A stretch of DNA of 64,000 nucleotides from Stratiformator vulcanicus (GTDB lineage: Bacteria; Planctomycetota; Planctomycetia; Planctomycetales; Planctomycetaceae), in NCBI RefSeq assembly GCF_007744515.1, contig NZ_CP036268.1, forward strand, positions 186,001 through 250,000, in the 5' to 3' direction. Below, piece after piece: positions 51,614 through 60,435 of this stretch. Each line of letters opens with the position of its first letter. Within the stretch, counting starts at the first letter, position 1. Under the pieces are notes generated by a model, which worked only from the letters and a program-made list of their open reading frames with translations, was not told the origin of the DNA and did no database searches. The translations under genes were made by a program, and so were the position numbers.

Positions 51614-52348
51614 CTACGGTGTTCTCAATTCTTCTTTTGCCCGATCGGACGCCTTTCGCCGCCGCGCGCGATTCTTTACCACCTCAATGATCTGACGGAC
51701 GTATTCGAGATCCTGTTTGCCTGACAATTGGTCCCAGCCGTCGAGTTCAAAGCTCTCTAGTTGATCCATCAGAAGGAGACGCTCGTACTGTTCAATGCTC
51801 AGTTCCGGGGCACCTTCGCCGAAGTAAAAGTGCTTTAAACGTTCGCTTTTGAAAAAGTCAGCGAGCAGATCGGGGTCTATTTGCGATCCGAAAACGAAAG
51901 AAAGGCTTCGCAGCTTACTATTGAGTACGCCGACCGCCTCAAAGTCCGCTTTGGTGGGCTTGCCCGCGAATGACCCGACGTGCAACTCGAAATACAAAAG
52001 TTCGATATCTTGAAATGCCGAAATTGATTGCAGGGCGGATGTCGAAAGATGCCCTTTGAAGTCAAAGAATTTAAGGCCGGGCATTTTTCCGAATAATGAC
52101 AGGCCGCCTTTCTCCGGAAAACGGCAGTTCTTAACAATCAGGGTGTGAATGCAATCGGATGTTGCGAGGTCATTCATTTGAGAGGATGTGAAGCGGTGAT
52201 TACTGATGGAGAACTGGCGGTCCGCTGCATTGAACCGGCCCTTTTTCATCCATTTAAATGGTGGGCTTTCGTCTAAATCCTCGGAACACGTGTAAGTGCA
52301 AGACACCATGCTTATGGCGAATGCCAGTACTGTAGCCAAACGTATCAT
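51614..52348 (-). CDS. LRR-like lipoprotein, paralog 2 of the 51.6-56.1 kb locus
   Basis: 244 aa. Short signal with lipobox MVSC (about residue 17), so probably a lipoprotein. Irregular leucine-rich-repeat-like strands follow (HTLIVKNCRFPEKGGLSLF, MPGLKFFDFKGHLSTSALQSI, LRSLSFVFGSQIDPDLLADF, LKHFYFGEGAPEL), then YERLLLMDQLESFELDGWDQL and a basic helical end (VVKNRARRRKASDRAK). It is paralogous to the protein at 52974-53738: Y-E-x-LLLMD-x-L-x5-L-x-GW-x-QLS and the charged tail are shared, while the first half is strongly diverged. The start overlaps the stop of the orphan module by four bases (ATGA). GC content is visibly lower than in surrounding genes. Confidence 0.75.
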   Translation of the reverse strand: MIRLATVLAFAISMVSCTYTCSEDLDESPPFKWMKKGRFNAADRQFSISNHRFTSSQMNDLATSDCIHTLIVKNCRFPEKGGLSLFGKMPGLKFFDFKGHLSTSALQSISAFQDIELLYFELHVGSFAGKPTKADFEAVGVLNSKLRSLSFVFGSQIDPDLLADFFKSERLKHFYFGEGAPELSIEQYERLLLMDQLESFELDGWDQLSGKQDLEYVRQIIEVVKNRARRRKASDRAKEELRTP

Positions 52349-52959
52349 TCTACAATTTCCTTGACACGAATGTTACTGTAAATTACCCCGCTGCCCCAGT
52401 GCTGCTGAAACAAAATTGTGTCACTTTTGGGACGCGTTTTCCCTCCGCCTGTCCCGCCCTCAATTGTTCCGTAGTCGATCCAATCGCCATCGCCGAGCTT
52501 GACGAGAACACTATAAGTGTTATTTGAAGGTTCGTTGTCATCCGTCCTCAATCGCTGAATTCGCATTGTAATGGAGCCACCGCCCTGAGGAGCGTTTTGC
52601 AAGTCAGTCAGTAATGTCGCGTCCGTTTCATTGTAAGGCACTCCGGTGATCAGAGAAGCCACATCCTCCTGCAACCATGGCTTCGTTCCACCGGTCATAT
52701 CGACCTTCCCGCCGACGACGGTTCCGCTCACATTGGCAGTGTTCCCCCCAATAATAACCTGCCCGGCAGTCATGGCAGCCAGCAGAGACGCGGTATCGAA
52801 GATTTGAACCTCTACCTTGTTATCAAAGTAGACGCCACCGTTCGAGAAGAAGCCCGGCTTGCTCTTATGATAATCCGCATCTACATAATTTCCGGCTGTC
52901 ACTCCCGGGCGGCCGTCCTCAAGACTATAGTCGGGCGAAAGTTCATAACTCAGGCACAC
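52345..52959 (-). CDS. Orphan copy of the C-terminal lectin/DUF1080-like module
   Basis: 204 aa from GTG 52959, the only start available after the frame opens. It aligns along its full length with the last about 198 residues of the 794-aa protein: SLEDGRPGVTAGNYVDAD / SFENGRPGITTGHYVEAD, KPGFFSNGGVYFDNK / KPGFFANGGVYFDNK, LITGVPYNE / LISGVPYAS, ILFQQHWGSGVIYSNIRVKEI / IHFQQHWGSGVIYSNINIKEI. The GVYFDNKxExQIxD and closing segments resemble DUF1080-type concanavalin-like domains. There is no export signal, so it may be silent, translated by coupling, or a recombination reserve for the large gene. It lies 14 bases after the first LRR gene and overlaps the second by four. Confidence 0.75.
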   Translation of the reverse strand: MCLSYELSPDYSLEDGRPGVTAGNYVDADYHKSKPGFFSNGGVYFDNKVEVQIFDTASLLAAMTAGQVIIGGNTANVSGTVVGGKVDMTGGTKPWLQEDVASLITGVPYNETDATLLTDLQNAPQGGGSITMRIQRLRTDDNEPSNNTYSVLVKLGDGDWIDYGTIEGGTGGGKTRPKSDTILFQQHWGSGVIYSNIRVKEIVE

Positions 52960-52973
52960 ATCATTTCGACCGA

Positions 52974-53738
52974 TTAAGAGGGGCCAGCACCGTCATTGCG
53001 AAGTTTGCTTCGCTTTCGATTGAAGAAGGCGCGGGAGCGTCGTTGAGCACGAGCTTCGGCAACTTCCATGATGATCTTGACGTACCGGCGATCGGGATCG
53101 CTCAGCTGCTCCCACCCGCTGAGATTGACGGTTCTTAATTCATCCATCAGAAGCAAATTCTCGTAAGTCCTGACCGGCAAACCAGGTATTGGATCTTCGA
53201 TTGAAAAGCCAGTTAACTTGGGGTTGGCAAGAAGTAGTTGGATCAGCTTTACGTTGGGTTGAATACCGACCTCGATACCAAATCCTTTCAAATGCTTGTT
53301 CAGAGCGGGAATCGCTTGCAGCTCGCTCGGGCGCGCGGTGTTCCATTGCGAATAACTAGAAAGCGACACATTAAACGACTCGAGCGATTGGATTTTCGCC
53401 ATGGTGGCAAACATGTCTTCGGGAACCGTCGAATAGAAGTCGAATGACTTGACGGAAGGCATCGAAGCAAGCGGTTCGATCGAATTATCCGGGAATGAAC
53501 AGTTAATGAAAATGATATACGGCACATGATCCAGTTTGGACAATTGTTCTAACTGGCATTTGTCGAAGGATCTTCGTTCAAATCTCAGCGCACCTTCTTG
53601 GAGAACCTCGTCCGGCTTAACCCACGACAAAAGACTGTCATCCGCCGCAACAGGGTGTTGGCTCGCCGAGTACGCGAGAGCGTGGCAAATAACTAGTAAT
53701 GAAGCCGCTTTACATAGGCCCCAAAGTCCCGCGCCCAT
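52974..53738 (-). CDS. Exported LRR-like protein, paralog 1
   Basis: 254 aa. N-terminal hydrophobic signal (LWGLCKAASLLVICHALAYSAS), probable cleavage before QHPVAADD. LRR-like strands follow (PYIIFINCSFPDNSIEPLASM, VKSFDFYSTVPEDMFATMAKI, LESFNVSLSSYSQ, LTGFSIEDPIPGLP), then YENLLLMDELRTVNLSGWEQLSD and a basic tail (EARAQRRSRAFFNRKRSK). The start codon overlaps the stop of the 794-aa gene by one base (TGATG), so translation is probably coupled. One such LRR protein is paired with each copy of the DUF1080-like module, implying that it works with, or protects against, that module. Confidence 0.75.
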   Translation of the reverse strand: MGAGLWGLCKAASLLVICHALAYSASQHPVAADDSLLSWVKPDEVLQEGALRFERRSFDKCQLEQLSKLDHVPYIIFINCSFPDNSIEPLASMPSVKSFDFYSTVPEDMFATMAKIQSLESFNVSLSSYSQWNTARPSELQAIPALNKHLKGFGIEVGIQPNVKLIQLLLANPKLTGFSIEDPIPGLPVRTYENLLLMDELRTVNLSGWEQLSDPDRRYVKIIMEVAEARAQRRSRAFFNRKRSKLRNDGAGPS

Positions 53739-56122
53739 CAGATTTCCTTAATATTAATGTTGGAGTAAATCACGCCGCTGCCCCAATGTTGCTGGAAGTG
53801 AATCTTCCCATTGGGAACGCGCCGTTTGCTTGATCCGCTAGTTCCACCGTCGATTCTAGTCCATTCACCCCAGTCGCCGTCTCCGACGAGTGTGCGAATT
53901 TCGTAGATGCTGTCGACTCCGTCAGCCTCTATTCTGCGAAATTGAATTGCTATTTGACCGCCTCCCTGAGGCGCAGTCTCCAGATCAGTCATAGAATTCA
54001 AAGAACTGTCGCTCGCGTACGGCACACCACTAATCAAGGTGTTCACACTTTCCTGCCTCCAAGGCTTGGAGCCACCAGAGAGATTCGTCACACTTCCGTT
54101 CAACCCGCCATTAAGTGTCACCTGATTTCCGCCGATTACCACGGGTGTTCCATTAATTGCCGCAAGCAATGCAGCAGTGTCGTATATCTGTAGTTCAGCT
54201 TTGTTGTCAAAGTAAACACCGCCATTCGCAAAAAAGCCCGGTTTACTGTCTGCATTGTCAGCTTCGACATAGTGCCCGGTTGTTATACCGGGGCGACCAT
54301 TCTCAAAAGAATACTCAAACGAAATCTCGTAGGCGTAACTGCCAGCTTGATCAATGTCAAACGTCACGTCGTATGTACTACCAAGGTTCTTACCCAACCA
54401 CTGCCCGGTCGATTCATTCTTCACTGGCCCCGGCGTGCGGAGTTGAGCGGGTGTTCCGCCTGCGATCGTCGCCAATGACCCGATGACTTTCCAGCCGGTC
54501 GGCACATCGACGGTATTGTCCCAATGCGATGTATCGAGACTCAAGTCGGTCGCGGGGTCGACTGCGATTTTCAGAGCTTCGACGCTGACACTGATCGTAT
54601 CTCGCTCGATGATTGTGGCACGGTCTTCGGAGTAGAGCCGCAAGTGGACCTTAAAATCACCTTCGCCATAACCTTCCACATAGACCGTGCTCGGGAGACT
54701 GCTTTGCCCATCGGCGCCGATCTTCCAATAACGACGTGACCCCTGTGTTACAGTCGGATCATACCCAGTTAGCGACGACTTCTGCTGATTGCTATACAAG
54801 CGAAGCTGGGTTGCTTCCAAAGCAATCCATTTCCCGGCGTTGGCTGCGACATGGACTTCCGAAAGATCAAGCGACACTTCGAGCAGGTCATCGTCGATAA
54901 AAGTGCCGAAACTTGTATATGTTGCAGAGGAATCTGATGAGTCGGCTACTCCGTTCAAATTGTCATCATCAACATTAACGAAAGTTCGCAGGCCGAGACC
55001 ATTTGAGGGGTCTTCCGCGGCGTCATCGTCCTCATCGATATCGCCGTCTCCGTCAATATCGGCCCCCAAATCAATCCCGGTCATATCCGCAACCGAAACC
55101 ACCACCCGTCCACTCGCCGCATCAAAGCCGGCTGCGCCGCCCTGTGTCGCAGTCACTTCAAACGCTTCGGTGAAGCCGACGCCTTTCCAGGACTTGCCGT
55201 CGATGTAGCCGGTCGATTCATAGTCGAGCTGTTTAATTAATGTCAGCTTGTGCTCGCCGTCGATCTCTTCGATTTCGAAGTATTCGCTATTGCTGAGCGA
55301 GACCGAGAACGGATCGGACGCCCATTCGGCGGGGAGGGTAGCGACATAGGTGCCGACGGCCGTGTCTTCGCTCAGCGTAATATTAATGTCGCCGACGACC
55401 GCGATCTTAACGCCCGCGGAGTCGCTCGAAACGCCATCGGTCACCGTGTAAGACAATTCATCCACGCCGAGGTAGTCGGCGTCGGGTTTATAGAACAGGC
55501 CGCCGCGTTTGCTCAGCCATTTCGCGACACCGCCGTCGGTCGAGACGTCGCGCTGCGTCGTCGTGGTGAGGTCATCGCCGTCCGAGTCGTTGTCGTTATC
55601 GAATAACGGCCCGCGCCAGCCGGTGTAAATGTCGTCTTCATTATTAATGACGAATGCGTCGTCGGCCGCCGTGACGGCGCTATTTTTAAGTTTAATATTG
55701 ACCGTCGCGTCGTAGGTGTCGGTGCCGTTGTCGACGGTGATATCGAAGGACGCGACGAGTTCGTCGTCCGCGTTGGTGCTGAAATTCTTAGGCGCGATCC
55801 AGTCGATGCCGCCCCACTTACTAACCCATCTTAATTGTCCGCCGTCGACGCCGTTGGCGGGTGTGAAATTGCTATGCCCGGTAATTTGGGCCGACGGGTC
55901 GTTTAATTCATCGAGTAGTAACGAGTCGCGCCAGCCGGTCGAGATCCGCTTTTGGGTTTGATGCCAGTCGATGTCGATCGTCTGCGGGTTGGTCGCGGTG
56001 CCCGAAAGCATCACCCGCTGCTCCAGCGGTTCGATTGCGGTGAAGCCGCGTCGACGGCGTCGCGGGCGAAAGGAATTTGCGGAATCAACGTAGAGGGAGC
56101 GCAGCCAGTCCGTGACGACCAT
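53738..56122 (-). CDS. LEPR-XLL-type exported multidomain protein with C-terminal lectin/DUF1080-like module
   Basis: 794 aa. The N-terminus has Arg-rich RRRRR then FTAIEPLEQRVMLSG (residues 27-41), a LEPR-XLL-like element that marks large exported planctomycete proteins. Residues 75-160 and 180-260 are two Ig/cadherin-like tandem domains (VSKWGGIDWIAP..., LSKRGGLFYKP..DELSYTVTDG). About 262-360 is a cadherin-like domain (INITLSEDTAVGTYVATLP). DIDGDGDIDEDDD is a dockerin/EF-hand-like calcium loop. A beta region follows, then from about residue 597 the DUF1080-like module that is duplicated downstream. Probably surface or periplasmic, calcium-stabilised, carbohydrate-binding. Base composition falls toward the 3' part, as if the module came from elsewhere. 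Confidence 0.82.
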   Translation of the reverse strand: MVVTDWLRSLYVDSANSFRPRRRRRGFTAIEPLEQRVMLSGTATNPQTIDIDWHQTQKRISTGWRDSLLLDELNDPSAQITGHSNFTPANGVDGGQLRWVSKWGGIDWIAPKNFSTNADDELVASFDITVDNGTDTYDATVNIKLKNSAVTAADDAFVINNEDDIYTGWRGPLFDNDNDSDGDDLTTTTQRDVSTDGGVAKWLSKRGGLFYKPDADYLGVDELSYTVTDGVSSDSAGVKIAVVGDINITLSEDTAVGTYVATLPAEWASDPFSVSLSNSEYFEIEEIDGEHKLTLIKQLDYESTGYIDGKSWKGVGFTEAFEVTATQGGAAGFDAASGRVVVSVADMTGIDLGADIDGDGDIDEDDDAAEDPSNGLGLRTFVNVDDDNLNGVADSSDSSATYTSFGTFIDDDLLEVSLDLSEVHVAANAGKWIALEATQLRLYSNQQKSSLTGYDPTVTQGSRRYWKIGADGQSSLPSTVYVEGYGEGDFKVHLRLYSEDRATIIERDTISVSVEALKIAVDPATDLSLDTSHWDNTVDVPTGWKVIGSLATIAGGTPAQLRTPGPVKNESTGQWLGKNLGSTYDVTFDIDQAGSYAYEISFEYSFENGRPGITTGHYVEADNADSKPGFFANGGVYFDNKAELQIYDTAALLAAINGTPVVIGGNQVTLNGGLNGSVTNLSGGSKPWRQESVNTLISGVPYASDSSLNSMTDLETAPQGGGQIAIQFRRIEADGVDSIYEIRTLVGDGDWGEWTRIDGGTSGSSKRRVPNGKIHFQQHWGSGVIYSNINIKEI

Positions 56123-58453: not shown

Positions 58454-59063
58454 CGGGACGCGGATCGGACAGGAATCGGACTGTGCGGTCGAACAGCGAG
58501 AGGCTCAGCGATTGTGGGCAGGGAGTAAAGCGACTGCAACGGTCCGGTCCCGTAGATTCCCGCGATCTTGATGGACTTCGGAATGCACAACGGCTGCGAA
58601 TGGTCGGCGATCACTGGAGATTGCCACACAGTTGAGAAGTGTTGGTTGAGTTCGAATCGAAGTGTGGTTAACCCCCTGCCCCGTAGTAAGCCAGGTTGGT
58701 TGCGCGGCCACCAACGCGGGACAAAGATTACGTCCAAAACCAGCGAATATAAGGATTTTGGCGACTGGCACGGCCTATGCACCCTTCAGAGGCAAGCGGA
58801 TAACGACCGGGGTGTCGTCGGAAACGATTCCACCACACACAGCTTGAAATGTAAGGAGGCAGACGCAGTCGGCCCAATTGATAAGAGAATCAATGGGTGC
58901 TCAGCAGATTTTGACTTGAAGGTTTGCACCAGTACGACTGCGGCCAATTCACTTCCCCTGTCATTTCATCCGTGACGTTTGAGTCGCGATCGATCGCGGC
59001 TCGCCGGCCAAATGGTTTGTGCCGGGACACGCAATTCGCGCCTGTCAGATTGAGGAGAGATTT
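58454..59063. other. Divergent intergenic region comM / SOD-like gene
   Basis: 610 bases. Must contain the promoters of both flanking genes. A 135-codon plus-strand frame (58568-58975) has no protein-like features. GAGGAGA before ATG 59064 is the ribosome-binding site of the next gene. No terminator, RNA gene or repeat recognised. Confidence 0.45.
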
Positions 59064-60362
59064 ATGAAAAAGTGGACACTCACCGCATTTGCGACGATGC
59101 TGGTTGCCGGACTTGGCACCAGTATGGCGGTCGCTCAGTCCGAGCCGCTGGAAAAAGACCCGGTCGAAAAACGACTGAGGGGCGGGACCTCGGATGAATT
59201 GCTCGAACGCCGTGGGCGATTCGATGCCGTTGACGTCGATCGCGTCGAGATCAACGACTCCGACGAGTACCGCGGTACCAACGAGCGTCGTCAGGCCGAT
59301 CGCTTCGACGCCAGCCGATTTGAAGGCTACGACGAAGTCGAAGCCGACGGCCGGTACTATTACCGGGACGGACGGCGTCGTTTGGTCGATCCGAACTCGG
59401 GTCAGCCGGCACGAGTCCGAAGCGGCGTCGTGATTCAGGTCATTCCGAAAGGAACGATCGAAGGGCTGATGAATCGCTCTAGTCACGACGGCCAACGACG
59501 CAATCGCGGGAACGAGCAGTATGGCTCGAACCAACCGCAGAACCGCGTCAACGCCGCCGTTGTTGTGTTCTCGCCGATGCGGGATTCACAAATTGACGGA
59601 CACGTTCGCATGGAACGCAACGGTGACCAGGTTCGCTGCTGGGGCGACGTCTCAGGGCTGAGCCAAGGCCAGTATTGCCTCTGCGTGCACCAGTTCGGCA
59701 ACATGCTCGATAGTGCCGAGGGCCAGGGAATCGGCGACCAGTATCAGTGGCGTCAAAACAACTCTGATCAAAGGCAGAGCAACAATGCCAAGCGGGGTCA
59801 GTTCGCGACCTTTAAGGTCAACAAGAACGGTAAGGCTCAGTTCGATAAGACAGCCAGCCTTCCGCTCGGTGAATTCGTCGGACGTTCGGTCGTAATTCAC
59901 GAACTTGGTAATAATGGCCAGCCTAAAAAGGCCGTCGCCTTTGGTATCGTTGGCATTACCGACGAAGCGACCGGTTCACGGCGTGGCCAGAAAGAACGGA
60001 CTTCCGGCTATCGCGGAACCGACAGCGAGCAATCCGCTGACGACCGCGACGAGCAAAAACGGAACGCGGAAGATCGCGAACAGAATCGCGATCAGGCCGA
60101 TAACCGAGAAGCCGCACGTAAAGAGCGTCAGCGAAATCGTGACCGCCAGCAGAACGACAATCGCGAACGTAATCGCGACCAGTCGAACGCTGCGGACGAG
60201 ACTCGGAATGAGTCAGAATCGGACCGCGCACTGACGGTGCCCGAGCGTGATTCGAACGAGTCTTCAAGCTCGGTGGACCGGACAAAGACCTCGAATGACT
60301 CGACTTCGGGTCCGAATAGTGCGGCCGGTCGCTCAAACCGAAACGGTCAGAATCAAGAGTAA
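59064..60362 (+). CDS. Exported protein with degenerate Cu/Zn-superoxide-dismutase-like domain and highly charged tail
   Basis: 432 aa from ATG 59064 with GAGGAGA upstream. Signal peptide MKKWTLTAFATMLVAGLGTS, cut after VAQ or nearby. Residues 163-300 follow the Cu/Zn SOD beta-barrel: NAAVVVFSPMRDSQIDGHVRM, CWGDVSGLSQGQYCLCVHQFGNM (like GDVSGLxPGxHGFHIHEFGD), GQFATFKVNKNGKAQ, FVGRSVVIHELGNN (like VGRAVVVH) and AFGIVGI. Of the metal ligands H46 is Cys207, H48 is H209 and H120 is H279; the H63/H71/H80 loop is lost. Enzyme activity is therefore unlikely. About 130 C-terminal residues are almost only Arg, Asp, Glu, Asn and Gln, expected to be disordered. A terminator follows. Confidence 0.8.
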   Translation: MKKWTLTAFATMLVAGLGTSMAVAQSEPLEKDPVEKRLRGGTSDELLERRGRFDAVDVDRVEINDSDEYRGTNERRQADRFDASRFEGYDEVEADGRYYYRDGRRRLVDPNSGQPARVRSGVVIQVIPKGTIEGLMNRSSHDGQRRNRGNEQYGSNQPQNRVNAAVVVFSPMRDSQIDGHVRMERNGDQVRCWGDVSGLSQGQYCLCVHQFGNMLDSAEGQGIGDQYQWRQNNSDQRQSNNAKRGQFATFKVNKNGKAQFDKTASLPLGEFVGRSVVIHELGNNGQPKKAVAFGIVGITDEATGSRRGQKERTSGYRGTDSEQSADDRDEQKRNAEDREQNRDQADNREAARKERQRNRDRQQNDNRERNRDQSNAADETRNESESDRALTVPERDSNESSSSVDRTKTSNDSTSGPNSAAGRSNRNGQNQE

Positions 60363-60401
60363 TTGATTCGCATCGGATTTAATTTTGTTGGACCCCGTTA
60401 G

Positions 60402-60435
60402 GCGGGAAGGCACCGGAGGCCTTCCCGCTTTATTT
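60402..60435. terminator. Rho-independent terminator between convergent genes
   Basis: GCGGGAAGGC (60402-60411), 7-base loop, GCCTTCCCGC (60419-60428), then TTTATTT. A perfect 10-bp GC-rich stem 39 bases after the stop of the SOD-like gene. It serves the plus strand clearly and may help the convergent cytochrome gene. Confidence 0.9.

What the first reader, a model, noticed from the sequence alone, without database searches (positions are those of the whole stretch)
59064..60362. Degenerate Cu/Zn SOD barrel on an exported protein with a ~130-residue charge-only tail
SOD-like strands are clear, but the copper/zinc loop is gone and one ligand His is Cys. The tail is almost pure Arg/Asp/Glu/Asn/Gln. 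It may be a scaffold, metal chaperone or condensate-forming envelope protein derived from SOD.
Basis: partly seen in the sequence, partly recalled or inferred. Interest (0 to 1): 0.55.

Follow-up and report, generated by a model that had tools for sequence, protein, structure and literature searches.

The report
Exported superoxide dismutase that lost its metals

Summary
Window 59064-60362 (+) encodes a 432-aa protein with a signal-peptide-like start and a Cu/Zn-SOD barrel (Sod_Cu E 1.8e-11; AlphaFold2 barrel; Z 16.2 to solved SODs). Five of seven metal ligands are lost: H46->Cys, H63->Gln, H71->Ser, H80->Lys, D83->Gln; H48 and H120 remain. The active-site Arg is lost too. The 132-residue tail is 60% R/D/E/N/Q, not 'almost pure'.
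The genome is Stratiformator vulcanicus Pan189 by exact length. No ortholog appeared in 59, 170, 397 and 392 overlapping planctomycete genomes; all 115 other SOD rows read there keep six His. By Pfam profile, 84 of 86 class-level places score as canonical; the window and one other pseudo-SOD (G020) fall far below.
Best reading: a lineage-specific exported pseudo-SOD with a dead dismutase site. C205-x-C207-x-H209 plus H279 could hold a soft metal such as Cu(I); unproven. Metal-site-losing SOD relatives are known (YojM, CCS, dominin), so this is a new variant of a known kind.

The parts
59064..60362 (+). Whole gene, 432 aa pseudo-SOD
   Evidence: ATG preceded by GAGGAG at 59052-59057 (by eye)
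59064..59135 (+). Signal-peptide-like start, residues 1-24, AVA/Q cut
   Evidence: read by eye; no signal-peptide program was run
59136..59375 (+). N-terminal charged region, residues 25-104 (51% R/D/E/N/Q), mostly low confidence in the model
   Evidence: no credible homolog
59544..59963 (+). Cu/Zn-SOD barrel, residues 161-300
59676..59690 (+). C205-x-C207-x-H209 at the place of G44-x-H46-x-H48 (human SOD1 numbers) of the copper site
59700..59810 (+). Degraded zinc loop (loop IV), residues 213-249; H63, H71, H80 and D83 are Q226, S234, K243 and Q246
   Evidence: residues 232-240 below pLDDT 50
59898..59900 (+). H279, equivalent of copper ligand H120 (kept)
59901..59933 (+). Shortened electrostatic loop (loop VII), residues 280-290; active-site Arg143 position is Ala
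59964..60359 (+). Polar polyampholyte tail, residues 301-432; AlphaFold2 draws 324-388 as one helix
   Evidence: residues 304-432 have no other match in the own genome better than E 0.045
60400..60430 (+). 12-pair hairpin followed by a T-rich stretch, likely terminator between convergent genes
   Evidence: z -3.14; not reported by the consensus scan

Best explanation
A lineage-specific, exported pseudoenzyme of the Cu/Zn-SOD family. Shown: the domain is homologous to Cu/Zn SOD and is predicted to fold as its barrel; five of seven metal ligands and the catalytic Arg are replaced; conserved columns are lost more in the two metal loops than in the barrel; long polar extensions without detected homologs flank it. 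Inferred: it is exported, lacks normal SOD activity and the zinc site; the barrel is kept as a binding module in the envelope, with the polar arms as tethers. It may still bind one soft metal ion through C207, H209 and H279 (perhaps C205). This statement covers both the scaffold and the copper-handling readings listed as rivals.
For: Sod_Cu E 1.8e-11. AlphaFold2 barrel of eight strands matching human SOD1 D124V at Z 16.2, rmsd 2.0 over 123 residues, and a Bacteroidetes SOD at Z 16.2 over 133; Foldseek also lists human SOD1 with loops IV and VII deleted, TM 0.80-0.83 on the target. Ligand table: 115 of 115 other rows keep six His, 114 of 115 D83 and 114 of 115 Arg143. Bimodal Pfam scores in the class: 84 of 86 places at 131.5-171.6 bits, window 47.8, G020 36.3. 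Of 38 columns conserved in 90% or more of 110 distinct canonical rows, 17 are kept; losses fall on the two loops (14 of 19) more than on the barrel (7 of 19), Fisher P 0.049, classes drawn afterwards. Open frame of 432 codons despite a branch length of 10 in the tree. No other Cu/Zn SOD in the genome, one Fe/Mn SOD.
Against: No ortholog, so purifying selection cannot be measured. No conserved neighbours and no partner gene seen. Ligand and Arg losses alone are not significantly enriched over other conserved columns (6 of 8 against 15 of 30, P 0.26), so general decay is not excluded by that test. The AlphaFold2 model used an alignment of canonical SODs, which may push it towards their fold; the alignment-free run was not returned. 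Export was not tested with a program. No activity or metal data.
Confidence: 0.8

Rival explanations
1. Copper-handling protein: the old copper site has become a thiolate site (C207, H209, H279, perhaps C205) that holds Cu(I) in the envelope for delivery or buffering.
For: Two of the three Cys and two of the four His of the whole protein lie at copper-face positions (the 'face' is recalled SOD structure). Two or more of three random Cys on five such positions: 0.003, positions chosen after seeing them. The three non-bridging copper ligands are all Cys/His while all four zinc-loop ligands are lost (0.029 by random choice).
Against: No coordinates were available, so ligand distances were not measured. 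None of the eight window proteins scanned (42.4-63.3 kb, not all neighbours) matches a copper family by name. No family to show that the Cys are conserved. Keeping two copper-only His out of seven ligands is not unusual by itself (0.14).
Confidence: 0.25
2. Metal-free binding scaffold: the barrel and the polar arms bind other envelope or matrix molecules, like oyster dominin, a SOD-like extracellular protein without enzyme activity.
For: Barrel columns kept more than loop columns (predicted barrel); long polar arms on both sides; known precedent (PMC6530089 passages; PMC13017621 passages). A second pseudo-SOD with different losses in the same family, G020.
Against: No binding partner or phenotype; does not explain the paired Cys at the copper face.
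Confidence: 0.45
3. Decaying gene on its way out: the genome lost Cu/Zn SOD function and this is an intact-looking relic.
For: Single genome, very long branch, ligand loss not significantly sharper than loss of other conserved columns. Cu/Zn SOD is dispensable in the family: 143 of 170 family genomes, some incomplete, have no match over the cut-off.
Against: 432 codons without a stop, ribosome-site-like stretch (by eye) and hairpin terminator, signal-like start kept, barrel columns kept more than loop columns.
Confidence: 0.15
4. Still a dismutase with an unusual Cys/His copper centre, a remote kind of Cu-only SOD.
For: Zinc site and electrostatic loop degraded and a signal-like start, as in Cu-only SODs (PMC13017621 section 6).
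Against: Only two of four copper His remain; the bridging His is Gln, the Asp kept by Cu-only SODs is Gln and the Glu position is Lys, Arg143 is Ala.
Confidence: 0.05

Closest known systems
Planctomycete Cu/Zn SODs (mostly 'group 3b' of PMC8382915, passages)
   Same: Same barrel; 21-29% identity to the 21 planctomycete rows (32% to Alienimonas over the match)
   Different: They keep all six His ligands (115 of 115 rows); the open frames printed end soon after the domain, without such a tail. The paper says group 3b lacks the intrasubunit disulfide; I did not test that on these rows
Bacillus subtilis YojM, a SOD-like protein with a disrupted copper site and no activity (PMC10432803 section 10)
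   Same: Bacterial, SOD-derived, copper site broken
   Different: YojM's own paper was not held and its sequence was not compared here, so the ligand patterns are not contrasted
Cu-only SODs (Candida SOD5 type; PMC13017621 section 6)
   Same: Zinc site lost, electrostatic loop shortened, outside the cell
   Different: They keep an intact copper site and an E/D pair; here two His and one Cys, with Lys and Gln at the E/D places
CCS domain II (PMC13017621 passages)
   Same: SOD domain with altered copper site; human CCS chains are among the fold matches
   Different: CCS dII keeps the zinc ligands and is fused to copper-binding domains; here the zinc ligands are gone and there is no Cys outside residues 192-207
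Oyster dominin/cavortin (PMC6530089 passages)
   Same: Extracellular SOD-like protein without SOD activity
   Different: Animal plasma protein; ligands not compared here

Membership tests
Sod_Cu (PF00080) homologous superfamily | Profile score over the curated cut-off | tested here: met
   45 bits against 28.9
Sod_Cu (PF00080) homologous superfamily | Eight-stranded SOD barrel | tested here: met
   predicted only: eight strands in residues 164-298, Z 16.2; the model used SOD relatives as its alignment
Cu/Zn superoxide dismutase (enzyme) | Four His copper ligands | tested here: not met
   H46->C, H63->Q; H48 and H120 kept
Cu/Zn superoxide dismutase (enzyme) | Three His and one Asp zinc ligands | tested here: not met
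   Q, S, K, Q
Cu/Zn superoxide dismutase (enzyme) | Active-site Arg143 | tested here: not met
   Ala at the aligned column, Lys at the two residues before it
Cu/Zn superoxide dismutase (enzyme) | Dismutase activity | not testable with these tools
   needs protein
Cu-only SOD | Zinc site absent and electrostatic loop short | tested here: met
Cu-only SOD | Intact copper site and the E/D pair | tested here: not met
   two of four His; K243 and Q246 at the E/D places
CCS copper chaperone | Zinc ligands kept in domain II; fused copper-binding domains | tested here: not met
   zinc ligands lost; only Cys are 192, 205, 207
YojM-type bacterial pseudo-SOD | SOD barrel with disrupted copper site, no activity | tested here: inconclusive
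   copper site disrupted; direct comparison with YojM not made, activity untested

The most novel reading that the evidence does not exclude
The old SOD copper site has been rebuilt into a natural thiolate metal site (Cys-His-His, or Cys2His2 with C205) on the SOD barrel: an exported Cu(I) carrier or a copper-cysteinate electron-transfer protein that nature made by the same His46-to-Cys exchange that chemists once engineered into yeast SOD (the engineering work is recalled, not seen in any call).
Probability: 0.15. Interest if true: 0.7.

Novelty: new variant of a known kind. Interest (0 to 1): 0.36.

Why it matters
SOD-derived proteins that lost the enzyme are documented in eukaryotes and in a few Firmicutes. 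This adds planctomycetes, with two cases in one family (the window and G020, probably independent) against a background of canonical enzymes. If the Cys-x-Cys-x-His site binds copper, it would be a natural test of how a catalytic histidine site turns into a thiolate site.

Tried and rejected
N-terminal region as a shared domain: rejected. Residues 63-144, searched in 170 family genomes, found only G119 at E 0.0056 with a stop inside besides itself. Matches of residues 35-105 in G516 and 70-140 in G739 lie in a protein that looks by eye like a sulfatase and in a charged frame opposite other reading frames: taken as chance low-complexity matches.

Tail paralogs in the own genome: one match at E 0.045 with two stops inside: rejected.

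Conserved neighbourhood: comM, next to the gene here, is far from the SOD genes of G007, G060, G068 and G184 or on another contig. Of 14 window proteins compared at E 1e-5 with eight regions of 4 to 19.5 kb, only comM, the SOD domain and one kinase match appeared; comM and the SOD domain never in the same region.

Tree placement: 121 rows, the window's branch is 10, which I take to be the program's ceiling; place unresolved.

Single alpha-helix tail: the predicted helix 324-388 has no excess of opposite charges at i+3 (11 against 10.1) or i+4 (8 against 10.0) over shuffles; rejected as a salt-bridged single helix, though a helix is not excluded.

G020 as an ortholog: in phmmer against 117 rows the window ranks 112th for G020, and G020 117th for the window. 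Against this, the two share five rare residues, more than the window shares with any canonical row (at most four, mean 1.3), so a common origin is unlikely but not excluded.

Plasmids: no tblastn match; phages and viral contigs were not searched. NCBIfam: only a chance hit, E 1.4. Consensus promoter scan: nothing. Paper searches for a natural His46-to-Cys or pseudo-SOD in bacteria and for this organism's SOD: no natural His46-to-Cys SOD in the titles and abstracts listed; two searches listed only 12 of 786 and 10 of 80 papers.

The first genome-contig scan with the protein alone found no relative. The second used a pattern that demands the canonical motif, so its 80 loci were left out of the ligand count; 43 of the 80 were used in the alignment for the structure prediction.

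Full report
WHAT IS THERE. Window 59064-60362 (+) is an open frame of 432 codons with a ribosome-site-like GAGGAG six bases before the ATG (by eye), a signal-peptide-like start (by eye), and a 12-pair hairpin with a T-rich end at 60400-60430 (z -3.14; the consensus scan did not list it). Neighbours are comM on the left (name from its sequence, recalled) and, convergent on the right, a planctomycete cytochrome c protein (PSCyt1) and a Na/Ca exchanger. The genome is a single contig of 5,228,745 bases, the length given for the closed genome of Stratiformator vulcanicus Pan189, CP036268, a slow-growing member of the Planctomycetaceae from a red biofilm near Panarea (PMC10509075, passages and section 13). 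The identification rests on that exact length.

THE DOMAIN. Pfam gives one family, Sod_Cu, E 1.8e-11, residues 178-286. phmmer against solved structures finds 97 distinct sequences at E <= 10, best 1.6e-8; the 60 shown are SODs and CCS. AlphaFold2 with 43 relatives gives 10 of the 14 ten-residue blocks in 161-300 a mean pLDDT of 90 or more, with dips in the loops, and eight strands. VIA gives Z 16.2, rmsd 2.0 over 123 residues to human SOD1 D124V, and Z 16.2 over 133 to a Bacteroidetes Cu/Zn SOD. Foldseek lists 246 matches at E <= 0.001. The model rests on an alignment of canonical SODs; an alignment-free run was queued but had not returned.

THE METAL SITE. On a profile of canonical planctomycete SODs the window reads, in human SOD1 numbers (recalled): H43->Y204, G44->C205, H46->C207, H48 kept as H209, H63->Q226, H71->S234, H80->K243, D83->Q246, H120 kept as H279, R143->A290. 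So five of seven ligands and the active-site Arg are gone. Lack of the usual intrasubunit disulfide is nothing special here: the mainly planctomycete 'group 3b' SODs are described as lacking it (PMC8382915 passages). The protein's only Cys are 192, 205, 207, and its only His 141, 180, 209, 279. From recalled SOD structure, positions 44, 46 and 48 alternate to the copper side of one strand, with H120 on a neighbouring strand. C205, C207, H209 and H279 could therefore face one another; no coordinates were available to check. The chance figures (0.003 for the Cys, 0.029 for the ligand pattern, 0.14 for the two kept His alone) used positions chosen after seeing the result.

SURVEY. With the window protein as query, matches at E <= 0.001 came from 14 of 59 relatives, 26 of 170 family genomes, 78 of 397 class genomes and 44 of 392 phylum genomes; each tally includes the own genome, the sets overlap, and two of the 44 are the chance N-terminal matches. 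The loci of all these matches were read: 118 of the 122 loci examined gave a SOD row, 119 rows in all, four of them the window itself; the four loci without a row are chance matches of the N-terminal arm. Of the 115 others, 115 keep all six His, 114 keep D83 and 114 keep Arg143. Some of the 115 are the same place fetched twice; 110 distinct rows remain after removing these. The 80 named loci were left out because their pattern demands the canonical motif. A Pfam-profile search, which does not depend on the window, found 86 places in 82 of 397 class genomes: 84 at 131.5-171.6 bits, the window at 47.8 and G020 at 36.3. In the family, 27 of 170 genomes have a place over the cut-off; of these 31 places 29 score 134.6-156.3 bits and two are the window and G020; further matches down to E 1 lie below the cut-off and were not read. 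G271, G292 and G285, found only by the profile, show the canonical ligands.

A SECOND PSEUDO-SOD. G020 (L221:3040-3693) reads YRFLVAEFGD at the copper strand; none of the five alignable His ligand positions holds His, while the D83 column holds Asp, and the alignment ends before H120. It lacks the Cys pair. Each of the two degenerate proteins scores better against nearly all canonical rows than against the other, so two separate losses are likelier than one, although five rare residues are shared.

DECAY OR CHANGE OF JOB. For a working protein: 432 codons without a stop (about 2e-7 by chance) despite a branch length of 10, and losses heavier in the two metal loops (14 of 19 conserved columns) than in the barrel (7 of 19), P 0.049 with classes drawn afterwards. 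Against: the ligands plus Arg are not lost significantly more than other conserved columns (P 0.26), and no ortholog was found with which to measure selection. The genome has one Fe/Mn SOD and no other Cu/Zn SOD.

THE ARMS. Residues 25-104 are 51% and the tail 301-432 60% R/D/E/N/Q. Neither has a credible homolog in what was searched. AlphaFold2 draws 324-388 as one helix, at block means of 72 to 98 over residues 321-380, but opposite charges at i+3 and i+4 are no more common than in shuffles, and Asp and Asn, poor helix formers (recalled), make up 20 of its 65 residues. A flexible polyampholyte tether is at least as likely.

HOW IT MOST LIKELY WORKS. Inferred: exported, anchored or spaced by its polar arms, with the barrel used as a binding module; dismutation is lost. 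Whether the Cys/His cluster binds a metal is open. I put a metal-free scaffold at 0.45, a copper-handling site at 0.25, a relic at 0.15 and a residual dismutase at 0.05. These are shares among functions; the broader statement 'exported pseudo-SOD with a job' stands at 0.8.

KNOWN OR NEW. Cu/Zn-SOD derivatives that lost metal sites are reviewed for eukaryotes (CCS, Cu-only SODs, CSRP, dominin; PMC13017621, passages and section 6). For bacteria, YojM and an untested pneumococcal protein are mentioned (PMC10432803, passages and section 10). I saw no natural His46-to-Cys SOD in the listings, which are partial; the library lacks most subscription journals. Verdict: a new variant of a known kind, of moderate to low interest unless the thiolate site is shown to bind metal.

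Noticed in passing
L221:3040-3693 (genome G020, same family): A second degenerate Sod_Cu protein, 217 aa; none of the five alignable His ligand positions holds His (the D83 column holds Asp), and its frame seems to leave the SOD reading near the end. Corrects the wording of notebook entry 3.
   Followed up: partly
L027:610-1983 (genome G148): A SOD domain with canonical ligands fused behind two PDZ domains in one 458-aa protein.
   Followed up: partly
G077, G084 and G086 (genus g58): Two canonical SOD genes lie about 8.5 kb apart in each of these genomes.
   Followed up: no
window 51614-56122: A two-gene unit looks duplicated in tandem: 52345-52959 matches the C-terminal end of 53738-56122 at 53% identity, and 51614-52348 matches 52974-53738 at 30%; 52345-52959 corresponds only to the C-terminal quarter of the larger protein.
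   Followed up: partly
L169 (G298) and L187 (G486): SOD domains in very long open frames (1067 and 588 codons); possible fusions or merely open flanking sequence.
   Followed up: no
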